From: Acidimicrobiales bacterium
GTDB taxonomy: Bacteria > Actinomycetota > Acidimicrobiia > Acidimicrobiales > JAHEJN01
Length of the DNA: 56,251 nt
Assembly: GCA_024638845.1 (NCBI GenBank)
Contig: JAHEJN010000014.1
Location: 1 to 56,251, forward strand
Direction of reading: 5' to 3'
Each line of letters starts with the position of its first letter. Position 1 is the stretch's first letter. The position numbers were made by a program, and so were the translations under genes. A model generated the notes under the pieces. That model did no database searches. It worked only from the letters and a program-made list of their open reading frames with translations, and was not told the origin of the DNA. This document shows, piece by piece, positions 658 to 11,087 of the stretch.

Positions 658-3258
658 TCACGACCCGCGATCGGGAGGGCCCATCATCAGTGGGGCCAGC
701 TCGGCGCGACCGTTCATGCCCAGCATCACATAGATGCGCTGGAGATGGTTCTCGACCGTCTTGGGTGTCACATCGAGACGACGGCCGATGTCGCGGGTCG
801 ACCAGCCCGACGCAGCGAGGCGCGCAACTTCGAGCTGACGGTCCGACAGCGGGTGTTCGCACGCAGCCAGCAGTGGAGCCTCATACGCCGGGCATCGACC
901 GGAGATCTCGTACGCGGCCAATGCCGCTCGGGCTGCCGCAGCGGAGTCGTCGTGAGCGAGGGCCTCGGCCGCGAGAGCATCAGCGGCCGCGGCCCAGGCG
1001 CCGAGCTCCACGAACTCGGCCGCCACCTTGGCCAAGAGGAGCGGCTCGGCGGCGGCAGCCGCGGCGGCATGCCGGGCCAGGAGCTCGACGAGGGGACCCG
1101 AGTCGCGAGCCGCCAGTGCGGCCAGCTCCGATGCCGCGTCCTCCGGAAACCCGAACCGCACGGCCGTGTGAAGTGCCTGAGCGCCCCAGACCACGTGCCA
1201 GCGCTCGGCGGCCTGCGCTCCGGCCTCGACGACGAGCTCGGCGCCGTCGCTCGGTTGGCCGGACCGGGCGGCGATCCACGCCTCGGCCTGGGCCAACCAC
1301 ACCAGGTTGCGAGCCTCACCACGGCGCGGGTCGGCGCTCGCCAGGTCGAGGAGCTCCCGGGCCCGCGCAACGTGGCCGAGGATCGCGTGGGTGCCGGCAC
1401 AGAATGCGGTCGAGAGAACGAGCGTGCCGATCGGATCCGAGCCGCGCTGTCGCTCGACGGCCTCGGCGGTATGGACGACGGCACGTTCGAGGTCACCGAC
1501 GAGCCAGCGGGCCGGCGTGGAGATGTACAGCCAGGGTGAAAGGAGGCGCTCACTGCCGCCGTCGCTGATCATGACCTGCTCGGACAGCTCGATGCCTTCG
1601 TTCAGCCGCGCCGCCGAATGGAGCACGAGCACCCGGTTGAGCCCGAGCTGATCCCGCAACAACGGGTGCTGCAACCGCACGACATCGGCGAGGTCGTCGC
1701 CGCGGTCGAGCAGCTCGATGGCCCCGTCGACCTTCCCCGTCATGCTCAGGGCCAGCGTGTAGGCCATCAGAACCGGACCGGCGGCAAACGGTGGGAGATC
1801 GGCATCGACCAATGTGCCTCCGAGCTCCAGCGCGGTCCCGAAGTCGCCGGCGACACCGGCGACCAGAAGCGACCGAGCCGCCAGCTCGGCCCGAACGGCG
1901 GGATCGGTGACTCGCGCTTGCGCTGCCGCGAGGTGACCGGCCGCACGGGCGGGGTCGCCCAGGCCGAAGAGCACGGTGTCGGTGAGCGCGCCGACCACCA
2001 TGGCAACCTGCTCGTCGGAGCCGGCCGAGTCGAGCGCCCGTTCGAGAACACCGACCGACTCGTCGTGGCGGCCCTGCATGGTCAACGCCCGTCCGAGCAC
2101 GGCCAGCGCGGTCGAGGTCTCCCCGGCCTCGATCGCCGCGCGTCCGAGACGCTCGGCGGCACCCGGATCGAAGCGATCGACCGCGGCGAGGGCCCCGAGA
2201 GTCGCGAGCTCGGGGGGCGGGGTGTCGCCCACGTCGAGCATCCAGGTGGACACCCTCAGGGCATCGACGGGACTCGGGTCGCTGGCACCGAGGCGGGCCG
2301 CGATGGCTTTCAGGATGTCGTGCCGGTCGAGGCGCCCGACCTCCTCGCGCATGACTTCGCCAAGCAACGGGTGCGCCATACGCACGACCACCGTGCCCGT
2401 CTGGTCGTCGATCTCGATCAGCTGTTGGTGCTCGAGGGTGGTGAGCACATCAGGCTTCGCCACCGCCGTCAGCGTCTCGGCATCGATCGGGTCGGCTATG
2501 GCGACAGCGGCGAGGCCGCGTCGCGCGGTCGGATCGAGATCCGCGAGCCGCCGCTGCACGAGGTCCTGCACCCGGCCCGAGGCCGCGATCACGCCCTTCA
2601 GATCCCAGTAGTGGGGGCCGCGAACCACCGCTCCGTCGATTCGGGACGTCCACAGGACCTCACGGAGGAACAGCGGGTTTCCCCTGGTGATCTCCCACAG
2701 CCGGCTGGCCAACGCAACTGAGATGGGGCCGTCGAGCATGCCCGAGGCCACGGCGTCGGAGCCGCCGCGATCGAGGGGGCCGACATCGATCCGGCGAAGA
2801 GACTGATCCTTCCAGAGGGCCAGTACGGCCGGGTCACTTGCGCTGTCGCTGCGGGTGGTGGCCAAGACCACCGCCTCGCTGCCGGCAGCCAGCGCCGCCA
2901 CGGCGGCGAGCGAAGCGTCGTCGAGCAGGTCGACGTCGTCGACGGTGACCAGCGGCGGCGAACCAGGGGCGGCGACGAGTCGATCACAGAGCTCGTGCAC
3001 CAGCAGCGCTCGATCGACGGCGCGGACATCGCCGAGCAGATGGGCAACCGCCCCGAAGGCGATCGAGCGCAGAGCCGGCGAGCCGGTGATGGAGTGGACA
3101 GCGCGTCCGGACACCGATGTGCGGTGGGCGATCTCGGCCACGATGCGGCTCTTGCCCACGCCCGCTTCGCCGACATAGAGGGCGCTGACACCCGACTCCA
3201 CCAGCGCCAATCCGGCCGCGACCTCAGATTCTCGTCCTTCGGTCGGCCATTCCACCAT
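658..3258 (-). CDS. Large LuxR-family (LAL-type) ATP-binding transcriptional regulator
   Basis: The 866-residue protein has the LAL architecture. An N-terminal AAA/STAND ATPase domain carries the Walker A GEAGVGKS at residues 30-37 and a Walker B-like LVTVDDVDLLDD near 105. A long helical, TPR-like middle region follows. A C-terminal LuxR helix-turn-helix occupies about 800-855 (LSDRQLEVARLAASG, then TPKTVENHLQRIY). Such proteins are ATP-dependent transcription activators responding to small inducers; the ligand is unknown. It is divergent from the lipoprotein operon starting at 3400 and is followed at one-base spacing by the VOC gene. Length and both end domains fit the family well. Confidence 0.9.
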   Translation of the reverse strand: MVEWPTEGRESEVAAGLALVESGVSALYVGEAGVGKSRIVAEIAHRTSVSGRAVHSITGSPALRSIAFGAVAHLLGDVRAVDRALLVHELCDRLVAAPGSPPLVTVDDVDLLDDASLAAVAALAAGSEAVVLATTRSDSASDPAVLALWKDQSLRRIDVGPLDRGGSDAVASGMLDGPISVALASRLWEITRGNPLFLREVLWTSRIDGAVVRGPHYWDLKGVIAASGRVQDLVQRRLADLDPTARRGLAAVAIADPIDAETLTAVAKPDVLTTLEHQQLIEIDDQTGTVVVRMAHPLLGEVMREEVGRLDRHDILKAIAARLGASDPSPVDALRVSTWMLDVGDTPPPELATLGALAAVDRFDPGAAERLGRAAIEAGETSTALAVLGRALTMQGRHDESVGVLERALDSAGSDEQVAMVVGALTDTVLFGLGDPARAAGHLAAAQARVTDPAVRAELAARSLLVAGVAGDFGTALELGGTLVDADLPPFAAGPVLMAYTLALSMTGKVDGAIELLDRGDDLADVVRLQHPLLRDQLGLNRVLVLHSAARLNEGIELSEQVMISDGGSERLLSPWLYISTPARWLVGDLERAVVHTAEAVERQRGSDPIGTLVLSTAFCAGTHAILGHVARARELLDLASADPRRGEARNLVWLAQAEAWIAARSGQPSDGAELVVEAGAQAAERWHVVWGAQALHTAVRFGFPEDAASELAALAARDSGPLVELLARHAAAAAAAEPLLLAKVAAEFVELGAWAAAADALAAEALAHDDSAAAARAALAAYEISGRCPAYEAPLLAACEHPLSDRQLEVARLAASGWSTRDIGRRLDVTPKTVENHLQRIYVMLGMNGRAELAPLMMGPPDRGS

Positions 3259-5501: not shown

Positions 5502-6016
5502 CGTGGCGCCGCCTCGCGGTCGGTCTGACGGCACTGCTCCTGGTGGTCGGATGTTCGAGCTCGGCCGAATCCGATGCCCAGTCGACCCCATCCGAACCTG
5601 CGTCGGCGGCGCCGTCGGAGTCCGCAGCCGAGTCCTCCGAGGAGGACTCGGCACCGACGCCGGTGCCGACGGCAACGCCTGCGCCGACGCCCACGGCGAC
5701 ACCCGCTCTCCTCGTGAATGCCGACGGAATCGACGAGATCGAGCTCCTCACCGGGGTCGAGGGCAACGACGCCTACGCCATGCTCGAGTGGGTGGGCCTC
5801 GACGCGGCGAGCGAGTACACCGTCACCGTGTTCACCGCCGATGGGCGGCCATGGTGGGCCTGGTCCGGGCCGGAGACCTCGGTACCGCTGGGCGGGCTTC
5901 GTACCGAGGTCGATCTGGGTGGTCCCCGGGCCGGACCAGGCGTCACCTGGTTCGTTGTGGGGCGAGACGGCGACGGACGGCTCGTGGGCGTCAGTTCGCG
6001 GAGGGCCGTGGCCTGA
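5495..6016 (+). CDS. Small lipoprotein with a beta-sandwich-like domain
   Basis: The product is 173 residues long. It has a clear lipoprotein signal (RRLAVGLTALLLVVGC), then a low-complexity Ser/Ala/Glu and Pro/Thr linker to about residue 70. The final domain of about 100 residues (LEWVGLDAASEYTVTVF onwards) resembles one fibronectin type III-like repeat. ATG 5495 overlaps the preceding stop by seven bases and has GAGG seven bases upstream. It is the last gene of the operon beginning at 3400. The role is unknown; a long flexible tether carrying a small beta domain suggests surface display. Confidence 0.75.
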   Translation: MLTWRRLAVGLTALLLVVGCSSSAESDAQSTPSEPASAAPSESAAESSEEDSAPTPVPTATPAPTPTATPALLVNADGIDEIELLTGVEGNDAYAMLEWVGLDAASEYTVTVFTADGRPWWAWSGPETSVPLGGLRTEVDLGGPRAGPGVTWFVVGRDGDGRLVGVSSRRAVA

Positions 6017-6081
6017 TCGCAGCACTCATCGGATGACTAGTCTGAGGGATCCATCGACAGACCGGCCGGGAGGTCCATCTG

Positions 6082-7332
6082 ATGAGTGAGGATTCCCAGA
6101 GGCGGCCCGGGCCGTTCAGTCGCCTCGTCGGATCGGTCGTCTCGCCGGTGGTCGACTCGGTCGATGTCGACCACATCGTCGAGCGGATCGACGTGAACGA
6201 CGTGGTCAGTCGGGTCGACCTCGATGCGGTCATCTCAGATCTCGACCTCAACGCCATGCTCGACCAGATCGATCCCGACCGGCTCCTCGACCGGCTCGAT
6301 CTGAACCGGCTGCTCGACCGGCTCGATCCCGACCGGCTCCTCGACCGGCTCGATCTGAACCGGCTGCTCGACCGGCTCGACGTCGATCGCCTGATCGGAC
6401 GGGTCGACATGAACGCGCTCGTGCAACGGGTCGACCTCGATGCGGCCATCGACGGAGTCGACCTCGATCGCGTCATCGGCCGTGTCGATCTCGACGCCGC
6501 GGTCGACCGAGTCGACCTCAATCGCGCCGTCGACCGGGTCGACCTCGATCGCGTGATCGGTCGTGTCGATCTCGACGCCGCGGTCGATCGGGTCGACCTC
6601 AATCGCGCCGTCGACCGGGTCGACGTCAATGCAGTAGTCGAACGAACCGAGCTCGGTGCGATCATCGCCCGGTCGACCACTGGCGTGTTCGGCCAGCTAC
6701 TCGACGTGGCCAGGACACAGGTGATGGGCGTCGACCAGGTGGTGCAGTCGGTCCCGGCCCGTCTCCTCCGCGGTACCCGTCGCGAGATTCCGGAAGTCCC
6801 CGGGCCCGCCCCGAGCCCGGTCGAGGTTCCGCCCGACAGGGTCCTGACATCGGAGGAACGGGCGGTCGCCTTCCAGGGTCGCTATGCCGGTTCGGTGTCT
6901 CGCTTTCTCGCCTTCGTCGTCGACCAGTTCACCATGGGTGCTCTATTCGCCCTTGGCTCACTCCTTGTCTCGGCGGCCCTCACCGTTGTCATCGGCACCG
7001 ACCTGACGCTGTCGGCGGATCGACTCCTGATCGTGATCGCCTACGCCTGCTGGGCTTTCGTCTACTACGCCGGGTCGACCGCGGCGACGGGAAGAACCAT
7101 CGGCAAGGCGATCCTGGGCCTCCTCGTCGTCGACGGCACCGGCCAGCGGCTGACCGCAAAGACCGCGGTGGTGCGAACACTCGTCTTCCCGATCAGCTTC
7201 CTCCTCTTCGGCATCGGCTTGATCATCGGCCTGTTCCGGCCCGACCGCCGAGAGCTCCACGACCTCATCGCCGACACTGCGGTCATCTACCACTGGGACG
7301 CAGCCATCGCCGCCCGGCGCGACAACAGCTGA
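6082..7332 (+). CDS. RDD-family membrane protein with N-terminal nonapeptide repeats
   Basis: This is a 416-residue protein. Residues 27-197 are nineteen contiguous 9-residue repeats with consensus [VIL]D[LVP][DN]xx[VLI]xR. A linker follows, then a C-terminal RDD domain (about 280-400) with hydrophobic segments around FLAFVVDQFTMGALF, LLIVIAYACWAFVYY and VFPISFLLFGIGLIIGLF. The hallmark R-D-D residues are at RFLAFVVD and in the RPDRRELHDLIADT end. RDD proteins are poorly characterised membrane proteins linked to transport or assembly. GGGAGG nine bases upstream supports the ATG. A strong hairpin follows the stop. Confidence 0.85.
   Translation: MSEDSQRRPGPFSRLVGSVVSPVVDSVDVDHIVERIDVNDVVSRVDLDAVISDLDLNAMLDQIDPDRLLDRLDLNRLLDRLDPDRLLDRLDLNRLLDRLDVDRLIGRVDMNALVQRVDLDAAIDGVDLDRVIGRVDLDAAVDRVDLNRAVDRVDLDRVIGRVDLDAAVDRVDLNRAVDRVDVNAVVERTELGAIIARSTTGVFGQLLDVARTQVMGVDQVVQSVPARLLRGTRREIPEVPGPAPSPVEVPPDRVLTSEERAVAFQGRYAGSVSRFLAFVVDQFTMGALFALGSLLVSAALTVVIGTDLTLSADRLLIVIAYACWAFVYYAGSTAATGRTIGKAILGLLVVDGTGQRLTAKTAVVRTLVFPISFLLFGIGLIIGLFRPDRRELHDLIADTAVIYHWDAAIAARRDNS
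6160..6672 (+). repeat. Nineteen tandem 27-bp coding repeats
   Basis: Nineteen 27-bp units encode 9-residue repeats such as VDLDRVIGR, VDLDAAVDR and VDLNRAVDR. Higher-order duplications are visible at DNA level: units 12-14 (6457-6537) are nearly identical to 15-17 (6538-6618), and units 5-6 (6268-6321) are nearly identical to 7-8 (6322-6375). The array expanded by in-frame duplication of two- and three-unit blocks. Confidence 0.95.
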
Positions 7333-7494: not shown

Positions 7495-8217
7495 ATGGAT
7501 GAGAAGTGGATCTGGGCATCGATCGCTGTCGTCGCCGGTCTGACCCTCGGTTCGGTCTGCGGATTACTGGTTCGCCGGCTGCTCGGACGTCCGGGCCGCC
7601 GGCCTGCGCTCCAGCAAGTCGCGGCACCGGCCAGCATCTTCGTGTTCTGGGTGCTCACCGCGGCGGGTGCGCTGGTCGCCATTGCCGTCTCGAGCCCCGA
7701 CACCCTCCGACCCATCCCGGCCGACGTTCTCGCCTGGCTGCCGAACGTTGCGATTGCCGGCCTGCTGTTGCTCGGCGGCTATGCGCTCGGCCTGATGGTG
7801 GCCACCGCGGTCGGTCGAATGGTGACTCGAGCATCCGGCACCAGGCATCGGGGGCTCGAGCGGGCCACACGCACGGCGGTGTTCGCCGGTGCCGTCGTTC
7901 TCGCTCTCGGGCAGCTCGACGTCGACACCACGACGCTGAACATCCTGATCGCGGCTGCGGCGTTCGGATTGGCGGCGGCCCTGGCCGGGATCGCCATCGT
8001 CGGCGCCCGCTCGGTCGCGCCCGATGTCGCGGCGGGCCGAAATCTTCAGCGGACCCTTAGCGTGGGTTCACGGATCGAAACCGGTTCGATCACGGGCACC
8101 ATCGCCGAGCTGGGCATCTCGCATCTGGTGCTCGACACGGGTGCGGGCGTGATGCACATGCCGTACAGCCTGATCGCCGGCCAGCCGCTCCTGATCATCG
8201 AGGCCGCAGAGGACTGA
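7495..8217 (+). CDS. MscS-like mechanosensitive channel-family membrane protein
   Basis: The 240-residue protein has four hydrophobic segments at about residues 7-27, 46-67, 83-105 and 124-160. The last is an Ala/Gly-rich helix (NILIAAAAFGLAAALAG) like the pore-lining TM3 of MscS. A small C-terminal beta domain follows (GSITGTIAELGISHLVLDT), resembling the MscS beta domain. It is shorter than canonical MscS and lacks most of the cytoplasmic vestibule, so channel activity is an inference. AAAGGAG about 12 bases upstream supports the ATG. It converges on the envelope-stress locus at 8236. Confidence 0.65.
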   Translation: MDEKWIWASIAVVAGLTLGSVCGLLVRRLLGRPGRRPALQQVAAPASIFVFWVLTAAGALVAIAVSSPDTLRPIPADVLAWLPNVAIAGLLLLGGYALGLMVATAVGRMVTRASGTRHRGLERATRTAVFAGAVVLALGQLDVDTTTLNILIAAAAFGLAAALAGIAIVGARSVAPDVAAGRNLQRTLSVGSRIETGSITGTIAELGISHLVLDTGAGVMHMPYSLIAGQPLLIIEAAED

Positions 8218-8439: not shown

Positions 8440-8985
8440 TTAGCGCACTCGTGGCGGTTTGGGGTGATGGACGACCAGGAGGTTCACGCCGAAGTCGGCG
8501 AGGCCGAGGTTGATCCAGAACTCGTGGCCGAGTCGGGCTCGGGCTTGGTTCTCGATGTCGGTGAGGTTGGCCCGATCGTCGATCTCGATCGTGACGTGGG
8601 TGGTCTTGCGACCGATGCGTGCGTCGACGTCGACGATGCCGTCGATGCCGCTCAGCTCGTGTCGAACCGCCCCGATCGCCGCGCGACCCCGGATACTCGT
8701 ATCGCCGTCGTGGGCGCTGTTGACCTCGTGCACGGTGTTGAGTCCCTTCTTCGGAGGAGCCAGTTGAGCCGCGATCATCGCGACTCCGACGACGGCCAGA
8801 GCAGCGCCGACCACGCCGGAGAGCCAGAGCCCCCAGGTGGGGAAGAGAGCCGTGTCGAGCAGATCGCCGAGGTCCCGTCGCCACTCACCGCTGATGATCT
8901 CGGTTGCCTCGAGGATCAGGAAGACGCCGACTGTCGCGATGACGCCGATGCCGACGAGTTGGGTGGCTCGGCGCAGGGCGGTCAT
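8440..8985 (-). CDS. AmaP/DUF6286-like membrane protein, paralogue 2
   Basis: The 181-residue product has two N-terminal membrane helices (about 8-28 and 52-78). A soluble domain follows that is rich in short strands (ISG to VDVDARIGRKTTHVTIEIDD). This matches the AmaP-like alkaline-shock membrane-anchor family, whose members tether Asp23 to the membrane. ATG 8985 overlaps the upstream stop as ATGA; a longer frame to 9048 exists but would overlap the upstream gene heavily. It shares architecture with the gene just upstream, so the pair looks like a tandem duplication that diverged. Confidence 0.7.
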   Translation of the reverse strand: MTALRRATQLVGIGVIATVGVFLILEATEIISGEWRRDLGDLLDTALFPTWGLWLSGVVGAALAVVGVAMIAAQLAPPKKGLNTVHEVNSAHDGDTSIRGRAAIGAVRHELSGIDGIVDVDARIGRKTTHVTIEIDDRANLTDIENQARARLGHEFWINLGLADFGVNLLVVHHPKPPRVR

Positions 8986-9533
8986 CGGACCCGCCGCCTC
9001 GCGGTCATCCGTCGGGGAATCGAGCTGACGATTCGACCCGACCGGCACGGCAACGAACGAGCCTCAGTGATTTCGTCGACGCCGTCGCGGAGCTCCTTGA
9101 CCGACCCCATCACCGTCGGGTCGGGCGTGATGATGTTCAGGTCGACGCGGCCGTTTCGCCGGACGCGTACGTCCACGTCGTTGCGTCGATCGATGTGTTC
9201 GAGCTGCCGCTCGAAGGCGTCTTCGAGGGTGGCGCGGTCCAGCTTGGTCCAGCCGTGCCGGCGACGGGTCGTGATGACCCGACGGTCGGGCCCGACCGAC
9301 CGAAGCGCGGCCACCAGCAGCACCAACGCGATGATCACCAGGGCCCCGCCGACGAGCACTGCGGCCCCCGGGCTCGGTCGAGTCTCTATCCAGTCGACCA
9401 TGTCGCCTAGGCGACCTCGGCTGATCAACGGATCGGTTTCGAAGCTGAGCAGGAGCAACTGGGTGGCCGCCACCAGAATGAGGGCGGCCACCCCGATACC
9501 AACGACCCGCAAGGCGGTTCGACGAAGCAGCAC
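8982..9533 (-). CDS. AmaP/DUF6286-like membrane protein, paralogue 1
   Basis: The 183-residue protein has two membrane helices (GIGVAALILVAATQLLLL and AAVLVGGALVIIALVLLVAAL). A cytoplasmic-type domain follows with VDVRVRRNGRVDLNI, comparable with the next gene. The GTG at 9533 is 32 bases after the asp23 stop; no convincing Shine-Dalgarno is present, so the start is uncertain. Family knowledge (AmaP anchors Asp23) and adjacency suggest it holds the Asp23 protein at the membrane. The C-terminus is basic (RRMTARRRVR), which could contact lipid or nucleic acid. Confidence 0.65.
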   Translation of the reverse strand: MLLRRTALRVVGIGVAALILVAATQLLLLSFETDPLISRGRLGDMVDWIETRPSPGAAVLVGGALVIIALVLLVAALRSVGPDRRVITTRRRHGWTKLDRATLEDAFERQLEHIDRRNDVDVRVRRNGRVDLNIITPDPTVMGSVKELRDGVDEITEARSLPCRSGRIVSSIPRRMTARRRVR

Positions 9534-9565
9534 GTGACGACGCGGTCCGGTTTCGGTTCGGGCCG

Positions 9566-10000
9566 CTACTCGACGCGGCTCTGGGTCTTGTCCTCTTCGA
9601 ATTGGAGGTCGTCGACCTCGATGTTGACCTCTTTGACGATGAGGCCGGTGTCGGTCTCGATTCGGGTGATGACGTTCTCGCGAACCTCTTGGGCCAACGA
9701 GGGGATCGGATAGCCGTAGCGGACGAGAATCACTATGTCGATGGCCGCTTCCTTCTTGCCGACCTCGACGTTCACACCCTGGGTGAGCGATTCCTGTCCC
9801 GGCTTCACGCGCCCGAGAAGGCGACGGAAGGTCGCGCCCATACCGGCGACGCCTTCGATCTCGCGGGCGGCGTGGCCGGCGAGCTTGGCGACGACCTCAT
9901 CGGAGATCGTGGTGATGCCGCGCTCGGTCAAAAGCGTCAGACCGGTCTCGGTTCCCTGGGTTTTCGCCGTCACGTCGACGACGTCGGTGTTGGTTGCCAT
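9566..10000 (-). CDS. Asp23/Gls24 family envelope stress protein
   Basis: The 144-residue sequence carries the Asp23 pattern: GITTISDEVVAKLAGHAA near the start, EIEGVAGMGA, the strand VNVEVGKKEAAIDIVILVRYG, then PIPSLAQEVRENVITRIE and VKEVNIEVDDLQF. Asp23 proteins are abundant cytoplasmic proteins attached to the membrane through AmaP and support cell-envelope homeostasis. AGGAGG eight bases before the ATG is a strong ribosome binding site. It precedes two AmaP-like genes and follows the sigma factor pair, from which it is separated by about 100 bases. Confidence 0.9.
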   Translation of the reverse strand: MATNTDVVDVTAKTQGTETGLTLLTERGITTISDEVVAKLAGHAAREIEGVAGMGATFRRLLGRVKPGQESLTQGVNVEVGKKEAAIDIVILVRYGYPIPSLAQEVRENVITRIETDTGLIVKEVNIEVDDLQFEEDKTQSRVE

Positions 10001-10101
10001 GTGAGTTCCTCCTGAGGAGCAGTGGTGAATGCTTCAGTGGGGTAACGCACGGGGAAGAGCCCGGTCGCGCCCGTCGGAGGAGAATCTCGGAAGAAGCTGG
10101 G

Positions 10102-10440
10102 TCAGGAGTCGTCCGAGTCAGGCCGAGAGCCATCGAGGTTCTCGTCGGTGACCAGCATGGCCTGGCCCACATGGAAGCCCAGACCCAGCAGGTCGGCCAT
10201 GAGCGACACTGTTCCGTAGTTGTCGATCCGAGTCCGCACTCCTTGGGCGACCCGGTCGGTGAAATCCGGTTGCGGCGTGACCAGGCGATCTATCGCTTCG
10301 GTGTGAACCCTCTCGAGTGCCGTCATGGCTTCGAGTCGTTCTGCCACCGACGGATCGGTCTCGATGGCGTCTCCCACGCGGGCGGGCCGACCGGTGTCGA
10401 GCCACCGACGCAACGAGCGGTCGGTGACCTTGCGTCTCAT
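10102..10440 (-). CDS. Small soluble protein coupled to ECF sigma factor (possible anti-sigma factor)
   Basis: The 112-residue protein is soluble-looking, charged and mostly helical (RRKVTDRSLRRWLDTG, then ERLEAMTALERVHTEAIDRL), with an acidic end. It has no membrane helix and no His/Cys zinc motif typical of classical anti-sigma factors. ATG 10440 overlaps the sigma factor stop (ATGA) and has GGGAGG just upstream, so the two are translationally coupled. The position is that of an anti-sigma factor, but sequence alone does not establish the role. Confidence 0.65.
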   Translation of the reverse strand: MRRKVTDRSLRRWLDTGRPARVGDAIETDPSVAERLEAMTALERVHTEAIDRLVTPQPDFTDRVAQGVRTRIDNYGTVSLMADLLGLGFHVGQAMLVTDENLDGSRPDSDDS

Positions 10441-11087
10441 TGCGCCTCCCATGCTTCGAGCTCCTTCTTCAGGGCGTGCCGGGATCGGTAGAGCTTGGCC
10501 TTGACCGCCGACGGCGTGAGCTCCGTGATCTCGGCGATCTCCGCGTACGAGAGGTTCTCGCTCTCCCGCAGCACGATCAGGAGACGAGACGGCTCGTCGA
10601 GATGCGACAGTGCCGCTCGAACCGCATCGACCCGCTCCCGGCCCTCGACAACGCGTTCGACATCAGGAGCATCCGACGCCACCTCGCCCCACTCGTCGCG
10701 GGCAAAGGAGCGATTCTCCTTGCGCATCACCGAGATCGCACGATTCCGTGTGACCCGCCGAAGCCAGCGCACCGGGACGTCGTCGTCCCAGCTCGGCATC
10801 GACGTCCACGCCTGGAACAGAGCATCCTGGACCACGTCTTCGGCCAGGCCGTTGTCGTGGGTGACGGCATAGGCAACGCGGTAGAGCAACGGGCCCAGGT
10901 CGTCGGCCAACTCGCGGATCTGATCATCCGACGCGGCCCGCTCACCACGACCATTCGCATCAGCGCCCGGCCCGACCGGCAGTCCCGTCAACGACAACAG
11001 ACCCACCGTGACCGCCAGCGCAACCATCAGGACGATCACGACGTCGTCCGGACGGGGAGAATCGAGCCGACACACGGCATGCGGCAC
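10437..11087 (-). CDS. ECF (sigma-70 family) RNA polymerase sigma factor
   Basis: The product has region 2 (LYRVAYAVTHDNGLAEDVVQ, then ALFQAWTSMP and WLRRVTRNRAISVMR) and region 4 (LSYAEIAEITELTPSAVKAK), as in ECF sigma factors. Upstream of region 2 the frame encodes an unusual hydrophobic stretch (VVIVLMVALAVTVGLLSLTG). The start is uncertain: GTG, ATG and TTG codons occur in or before this stretch and none has a strong Shine-Dalgarno. It is head gene of the envelope-stress locus and overlaps the small coupled gene at 10440. Likely it directs transcription of the Asp23 genes; this is inferred from adjacency. Confidence 0.85.
   Translation of the reverse strand: MPHAVCRLDSPRPDDVVIVLMVALAVTVGLLSLTGLPVGPGADANGRGERAASDDQIRELADDLGPLLYRVAYAVTHDNGLAEDVVQDALFQAWTSMPSWDDDVPVRWLRRVTRNRAISVMRKENRSFARDEWGEVASDAPDVERVVEGRERVDAVRAALSHLDEPSRLLIVLRESENLSYAEIAEITELTPSAVKAKLYRSRHALKKELEAWEAQ

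What the first reader, a model, noticed from the sequence alone, without database searches (positions are those of the whole stretch)
6160..6672. Nineteen perfect-period 9-residue repeats fused to an RDD membrane domain
Residues 27-197 form uninterrupted nonapeptides [VIL]D[LVP][DN]xx[VLI]xR with no insertions. Regular D/N and R spacing suggests a solenoid or a charged, elongated assembly at the membrane. The fold is not one I can name.
Basis: seen in the sequence. Interest (0 to 1): 0.6.

Follow-up and report, generated by a model that had tools for sequence, protein, structure and literature searches.

The report
Nine-residue repeat scaffold paired with RDD
This bacterial gene makes a long chain of nine-residue units, each probably a tiny helix, joined to a membrane protein domain called RDD; the same pairing recurs in dozens of species, as one gene or as two touching genes, so the two parts almost certainly work together although I found no description of them.

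Summary
ORF 6082-7332 (+, 416 aa) carries 19 in-register nonapeptides (aa 27-197) before an RDD domain (PF06271). The repeat matches no Pfam or NCBIfam model of its own and no paper in the open library. It is widespread: 80 loci from public genomes, mostly Actinomycetota, and 26 of 396 sampled genomes of the phylum. Consensus from 1,356 units: V-D-[VLI]-[DN]-[AR]-[LVI]-[LVA]-[DA]-R. In every evaluable case the array plus a ~60-aa C-terminal cap is fused to RDD (30) or lies next to an RDD gene (49); 40 of 48 same-strand pairs show a 4-nt stop/start overlap. An RDD tree needs nine fused/split switches (at least six forced). R274, D281 and D394 are invariant in 79 domains. AlphaFold2 with a 79-row alignment predicts one 7-residue helix plus a 2-residue linker per unit (pLDDT about 60-79), a long cap helix and a confident RDD fold. 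Best reading: an acidic, length-variable short-helix solenoid at the cytoplasmic face, an obligate scaffold or regulatory partner of an RDD protein. The pairing is strongly supported, the fold moderately; the function is inferred.

The parts
6082..7332 (+). Whole gene, 416 aa: N-cap helix, nonapeptide array, cap, linker, RDD domain
   Evidence: ORF list; Pfam RDD; homologues with the same order
6112..6159 (+). aa 11-26, predicted amphipathic helix that caps the N-terminal end of the array
   Evidence: AF2 helix 11-26, low confidence, pLDDT about 53-61; hydrophobic moment 0.49
6160..6645 (+). aa 27-188, 18 nonapeptide units, each predicted as helix (positions 3-9) plus V-D linker (positions 1-2)
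   Evidence: Register and statistics; AF2 with 79 rows; consensus from 1,356 units
6646..6672 (+). aa 189-197, 19th unit TELGAIIAR, transition into the cap helix
   Evidence: AF2 helix 191-228 starts inside it; same position degenerate in homologues
6652..6765 (+). aa 191-228, conserved cap helix (family consensus STxGVAxxxLDLARRQxVGLDxxxxRxxxRLxRR)
   Evidence: Alignment A2; AF2; about 60 aa after the array is the usual length in split proteins
6766..6849 (+). aa 229-256, proline-rich linker between cap and RDD
   Evidence: Sequence; no helix predicted
6883..7272 (+). aa 268-397, RDD membrane domain; R274, D281, D394 are the family signature
   Evidence: PF06271 5.6e-24, 9.8e-25 in the genome search; residues invariant in 79 of 79; AF2 pLDDT mostly above 90
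6257..6380 (+). 54-bp (two-unit) DNA tandem duplication inside the array, 97% matches
   Evidence: Tandem Repeats Finder
6368..6624 (+). 81-bp (three-unit) DNA tandem duplication inside the array, 83% matches
   Evidence: Tandem Repeats Finder

Best explanation
The protein is the fused form of a two-part membrane system: a cytoplasmic nonapeptide-repeat module (array plus ~60-aa cap) and an RDD membrane domain. Shown here: the two parts are linked in every evaluable genome, as a fusion or as neighbouring, usually overlapping genes, with repeated switches between the two states; the array varies from about 4 to 31 units even where RDD is over 80% identical; all three RDD signature residues are kept. 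Predicted: each unit is a 7-residue helix (D2 as N-cap, positions 3, 6 and 7 as hydrophobic face, R9 at the C-end) joined by a two-residue V-D linker, so the array is a very short-repeat alpha solenoid with about one net negative charge per unit, ended by a long cap helix leading to RDD. [quoted passage not shown]
For: Coupling: 40 of 48 same-strand split pairs have a candidate RDD start that overlaps the end of the array gene by 4 nt. Fission/fusion: 9 changes on the RDD tree, at least 6 forced by well-supported branches, with both states in Kribbella and Phytoactinopolyspora. No other neighbour is conserved. RDD residues R274, D281, D394 79/79. Fold: AF2 helices at positions 3-9 of the units, the same boundaries already in the single-sequence model for several units; 82 of 109 prolines in 1,138 units sit at position 3, the first helical residue; D at position 2 in 93%. 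Length: RDD 81% identical in L052, L089, L103 but 31, 13 and 11 units. Purifying constraint among units, N/S-like ratio 0.56. Published: RDD said to hold an intramembrane binding site facing the cytoplasm (PMC12419801); an RDD protein, SppI, binds and inhibits a membrane protease (PMC7568657).
Against: Repeat pLDDT is only 60-79 and pTM 0.55. Hydrophobic periodicity alone also fits a strand around positions 8-5 (170-degree moment 0.71 against helix 0.63), and the helix moment is reached by 15% of column permutations. No solved structure matches the repeats, so the solenoid is untested. No direct evidence that the array is cytoplasmic, that the cap touches RDD, or what the partner is. AF2 is known to be overconfident on perfect repeats (PMC11795689), although its bias there is towards beta-solenoids.
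Confidence: 0.55

Rival explanations
1. The array is a beta-solenoid (each unit one short strand around residues 9-4 plus a turn), comparable to the 9-residue RTX beta-roll, rather than a helical solenoid.
For: Alternating V-D-V-D at positions 1-4; strand-type moment 0.71 in the window starting at position 8; RTX repeats have the same period (papers listed).
Against: AF2 gives helices, against its known bias to beta-solenoids (PMC11795689). Prolines concentrate at position 3 and glycine is nearly absent from positions 1-3, 6 and 7; alanine, leucine, arginine and aspartate fill positions 5-9. The glycine-rich RTX consensus is absent.
Confidence: 0.15
2. The array is a flexible or partly disordered acidic spacer whose only role is to hold a length between the cap or RDD and something else.
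For: Very variable length, 4 to 31 units, even between close relatives; moderate pLDDT; high charge.
Against: Strict 9-residue register and hydrophobic positions 1, 3, 6, 7 kept in 1,356 units from several phyla, alignment gaps almost all multiples of 9 (62 of 66), constraint among units. A spacer would not need these.
Confidence: 0.15
3. The short amphipathic helices lie flat on the inner membrane surface and shape or sense the membrane around RDD.
For: Each predicted helix is amphipathic (mean moment 0.74 in the window protein); the partner is a membrane protein.
Against: All 80 arrays are net negative, median -1.0 per unit, unfavourable on an anionic inner leaflet; hydrophobic residues at linker position 1 suggest a packed core.
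Confidence: 0.1
4. The RDD part is a Na+(Li+,K+)/H+ antiporter as in Halobacillus andaensis and the acidic array is a cytoplasmic regulator or cation-collecting antenna for it.
For: An RDD protein has this activity (PMC5996927); the array is uniformly acidic.
Against: By spacing from the conserved HD, the indispensable D158 is kept in few members (residue 398 is D in 4 of 79) and R129 falls on a proline (P370) here; in B. subtilis the RDD protein SppI, which has all six antiporter residues, made no difference to salt or alkali resistance (PMC7568657).
Confidence: 0.05

Closest known systems
RDD family (PF06271), including SppI of Bacillus subtilis and RDD of Halobacillus andaensis
   Same: Same membrane domain, R-D-D signature invariant in 79 members
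   Different: The RDD proteins described in the papers read have no nonapeptide array or cap; their described functions (protease inhibition, antiport) are untested here
Alpha-solenoid repeat proteins (ANK, ARM, HEAT, Sel1, PPR, PUF, TAL, TPR as listed in PMC11514114)
   Same: Tandem helical units with a regular hydrophobic face, predicted
   Different: One 7-residue helix per 9-residue unit; reviewed families have longer units (PPR 31-36 in that review; two or more helices per unit from general knowledge)
RTX nonapeptide beta-roll
   Same: Nine-residue period with conserved Asp/Asn
   Different: No glycine-rich RTX consensus or turns; helical prediction; linked to a membrane domain rather than to a type I secretion signal
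VanZ-RDD and kinase-RDD fusions (PMC12419801)
   Same: Another module joined to RDD, read there as coupling to signalling at the cytoplasmic face
   Different: Different partner module; no VanZ or kinase here

Membership tests
RDD family (PF06271) | Sequence profile match above the curated cut-off | tested here: met
   85.4 bits against 24.1, aa 268-397; a split partner and other fused members also match
RDD family (PF06271) | Conserved Arg at start of TM1, Asp in TM1, Asp near the C-terminal end | tested here: met
   R274, D281, D394 in 79 of 79 aligned domains; definition from PMC5996927
RDD Na+/H+ antiporter (H. andaensis type) | Residues D154, R124, R129 and D158 needed for antiport | tested here: inconclusive
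   By spacing: D154 = D394 kept, R124 near R365 (kept in 76 of 79), D158 = residue 398 is D in only 4 of 79, R129 falls on P370; not aligned directly to the Halobacillus sequence
RTX nonapeptide repeats | Glycine-rich GGxG(N/D)Dx(L/I/F)x consensus | tested here: not met
   Consensus V-D-[VLI]-[DN]-[AR]-[LVI]-[LVA]-[DA]-R; glycine rare at every position
Alpha-solenoid | Tandem helical units packed into one continuous superhelix | tested here: inconclusive
   Helix per unit predicted at pLDDT 60-79; coordinates not available to measure packing; no fold match for the repeats in the PDB search
Described repeat families in Pfam or NCBIfam | Profile match over the array or cap | tested here: not met
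   No match above cut-off in the window protein; across the homologues scanned only one borderline DUF3618 hit (25.0 bits, cut-off 24.9, no stretch significant by itself)

The most novel reading that the evidence does not exclude
A new class of solenoid: an exceptionally short alpha-helical repeat, one two-turn helix per nine residues, forming acidic rods of 4 to 31 units that are obligate, co-translated partners of RDD membrane proteins across Actinomycetota and a few other phyla, giving these RDD proteins a common cytoplasmic output.
Probability: 0.35. Interest if true: 0.75.

Novelty: new variant of a known kind. Interest (0 to 1): 0.57.

Why it matters
RDD domains occur in thousands of bacterial proteins and their role is still called unknown. 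An accessory module that travels with one set of RDD proteins with essentially no exceptions is a direct handle on that role: it predicts a physical complex that can be tested in one experiment. If the fold is right, it would also be an unusually short helical repeat, of interest for repeat-protein design and for understanding how array length can nearly triple between close relatives.

Tried and rejected
PDB sequence hit 9e5c (LIM protein with a 9-residue period): low-complexity match of 25 bits spread over several alignments, dismissed. Foldseek on the whole model found nothing for the repeats; the best rows (peroxisomal ligase 7t92 chains) cover the cap end and RDD part; the viral library gave no match with E below 0.001. 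Absence of a fold match is not taken as proof of a new fold. No homologues among plasmids or phages. A universal two- or three-unit superperiod: not supported, lag 1 is as good as lag 2 over the family. Conserved third partner gene: none. A continuous amphipathic helix: rejected, moment 0.06 at 100 degrees over 95 arrays. L038 was a false hit. Single-sequence AF2 was too weak to use by itself (mean pLDDT 45).

Full report
Observation. The + strand ORF 6082-7332 encodes 416 aa. Residues 27-197 (nt 6160-6672) split into 19 nine-residue units without a single insertion. RDD follows at aa 268-397 (PF06271, 5.6e-24). At the DNA level the middle of the array carries recent 54-bp and 81-bp tandem duplications, yet differences among units are biased to synonymous ones (N/S-like ratio 0.56), as expected for a translated, constrained repeat.

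Not a singleton. Searches of 40 relatives and 296 genomes of the phylum found further arrays, and an array-plus-cap profile returned 80 loci from named public genomes: Acidimicrobiia, Streptomyces, Nocardioides, Kribbella, Gordonia, Rhodococcus, Geodermatophilus and others, with Myxococcales (L086, L087) and one Acidobacteria MAG (L119) (MAG assignment of single contigs can be wrong). With the profile, 26 of 396 sampled genomes of the phylum have it. The host genome has four RDD proteins and one array. From 1,356 units the consensus is V1(65%) D2(93%) [VLI]3 [DN]4 [AR]5 [LVI]6 [LVA]7 [DA]8 R9(78%). Pfam and NCBIfam hold no model for array or cap; one member touches DUF3618 at its cut-off without a significant stretch. 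Text searches for RDD with tandem repeats and for repeat strings found no description (the library holds open-licence papers only).

Anatomy. The length after the array is bimodal, about 60 aa or about 205-260 aa, with a few exceptions. The shorter form is the cap, with consensus STxGVAxxxLDLARRQxVGLDxxxxRxxxRLxRRDP; the longer is cap plus RDD. Using an RDD profile built from the family, 30 of 80 loci are fused, 49 have an RDD gene next to the array gene (48 on the same strand, L074 convergent), and the last (L094) ends at its contig edge. In 40 of the 48 same-strand pairs a candidate RDD start overlaps the end of the array gene by 4 nt, the usual sign of translational coupling; the other eight lie between -16 and +28 nt. 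No other gene recurs around the loci. A maximum-likelihood RDD tree needs nine changes between fused and split, at least six on well-supported branches, with both states inside Kribbella and Phytoactinopolyspora. This repeated fission and fusion is strong evidence for a single functional unit.

Evolution of the array. Unit number runs from about 4 to 31. In Streptomyces L052, L089 and L103 the RDD domains are 81% identical but the arrays have 31, 13 and 11 units. Compared with its nearest relative L047 (RDD 67% identical; 17 units), the first and last units are kept (VDVDxxVER at the start, VDVNAVVER TE[LI]GAIIAR at the end) while the middle has been rebuilt by different two- and three-unit duplications. 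So the ends are fixed and the length is free.

Fold. AF2 on the single sequence was poor (pLDDT 45). With 79 aligned sequences, all from the window or fetched loci (alignment A3; register kept in 62 of 66 gaps), mean pLDDT is 80: RDD mostly above 90, cap about 77-93, array 60-79. Every unit from 1 to 18 is a helix at positions 3-9 (the 11th one residue shorter) followed by the two residues of positions 1-2; unit 19 opens a helix running to residue 228. The consensus makes sense on this model: D2 is the helix N-cap, position 3 is the first helical residue, where proline is tolerated (82 of 109 prolines), positions 3, 6 and 7 lie on one face, and 4, 5, 8 and 9 are polar. PDB fold search gave no match for the array; the best matches, peroxisomal ligase chains (7t92, Z 9.8 over 131 residues, model 216-407), concern the RDD part.

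Mechanism. Hydrophobic membrane segments occur only in the RDD part and nothing like a signal peptide precedes the array, so I place the array in the cytoplasm (inference). R274, D281 and D394 are invariant in 79 RDD domains. Published analysis assigns RDD an intramembrane binding site facing the cytoplasm and reports fusions to signalling modules (PMC12419801), and the RDD protein SppI binds and inhibits the protease SppA (PMC7568657). All 80 arrays are net negative, median -1.0 per unit. I therefore propose that RDD senses or binds a ligand at the inner face, the cap couples the array to RDD, and the array is an acidic, multivalent, length-tolerant scaffold for a cytoplasmic partner. The pairing is shown by comparative genomics; the fold is predicted; docking by the cap, location and partner are inferred. 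The antiporter reading is disfavoured because two of four residues essential in the Halobacillus protein (PMC5996927) appear not conserved by spacing, and SppI had no effect on salt or alkali resistance.

Verdict. A real, widespread, apparently undescribed repeat module that is an obligate partner of a set of RDD proteins: a new variant of a known kind, with the possibility of a new, very short class of helical solenoid.

Noticed in passing
window 6883-7272 (RDD domain), model me8cda1ffda6a residues 216-407: The predicted RDD fold matches chains of the peroxisomal retro-translocon ubiquitin-ligase complex (PDB 7t92): all three chains are the top Foldseek rows, VIA-align Z 9.8 over 131 residues. 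No paper found in the library mentions RDD together with Pex2 and Pex10. Weak E-values (0.045 and up), so it may be only a common helical arrangement.
   Followed up: partly
window 8440-11087, - strand: Envelope-stress type cluster close downstream: Asp23 (9566-10000), a DUF6286-like protein (8440-9048) and a small sigma-70 family factor (10437-11087).
   Followed up: partly
window 7495-8217, + strand: Short MscS-like membrane protein just downstream of the RDD gene; matches to mechanosensitive channel models are below cut-off.
   Followed up: no
window 658-3258, - strand: 866-aa LuxR-type regulator with an AAA domain at the start and a GerE helix-turn-helix at the end.
   Followed up: no
window 5991-6680, - strand: A 229-aa antisense ORF (Ser-Thr-Arg rich) is open across the whole array, a by-product of the palindromic GTCGAC common in the repeats; antisense hits also appear in homologues and could be mis-annotated as genes.
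   Followed up: partly
L003 and L065 (split forms), region before the array: Many split array proteins carry an extra Ala-rich N-terminal region of roughly 100 aa or more that fused forms mostly lack; it has no clear Pfam match and was not analysed.
   Followed up: no
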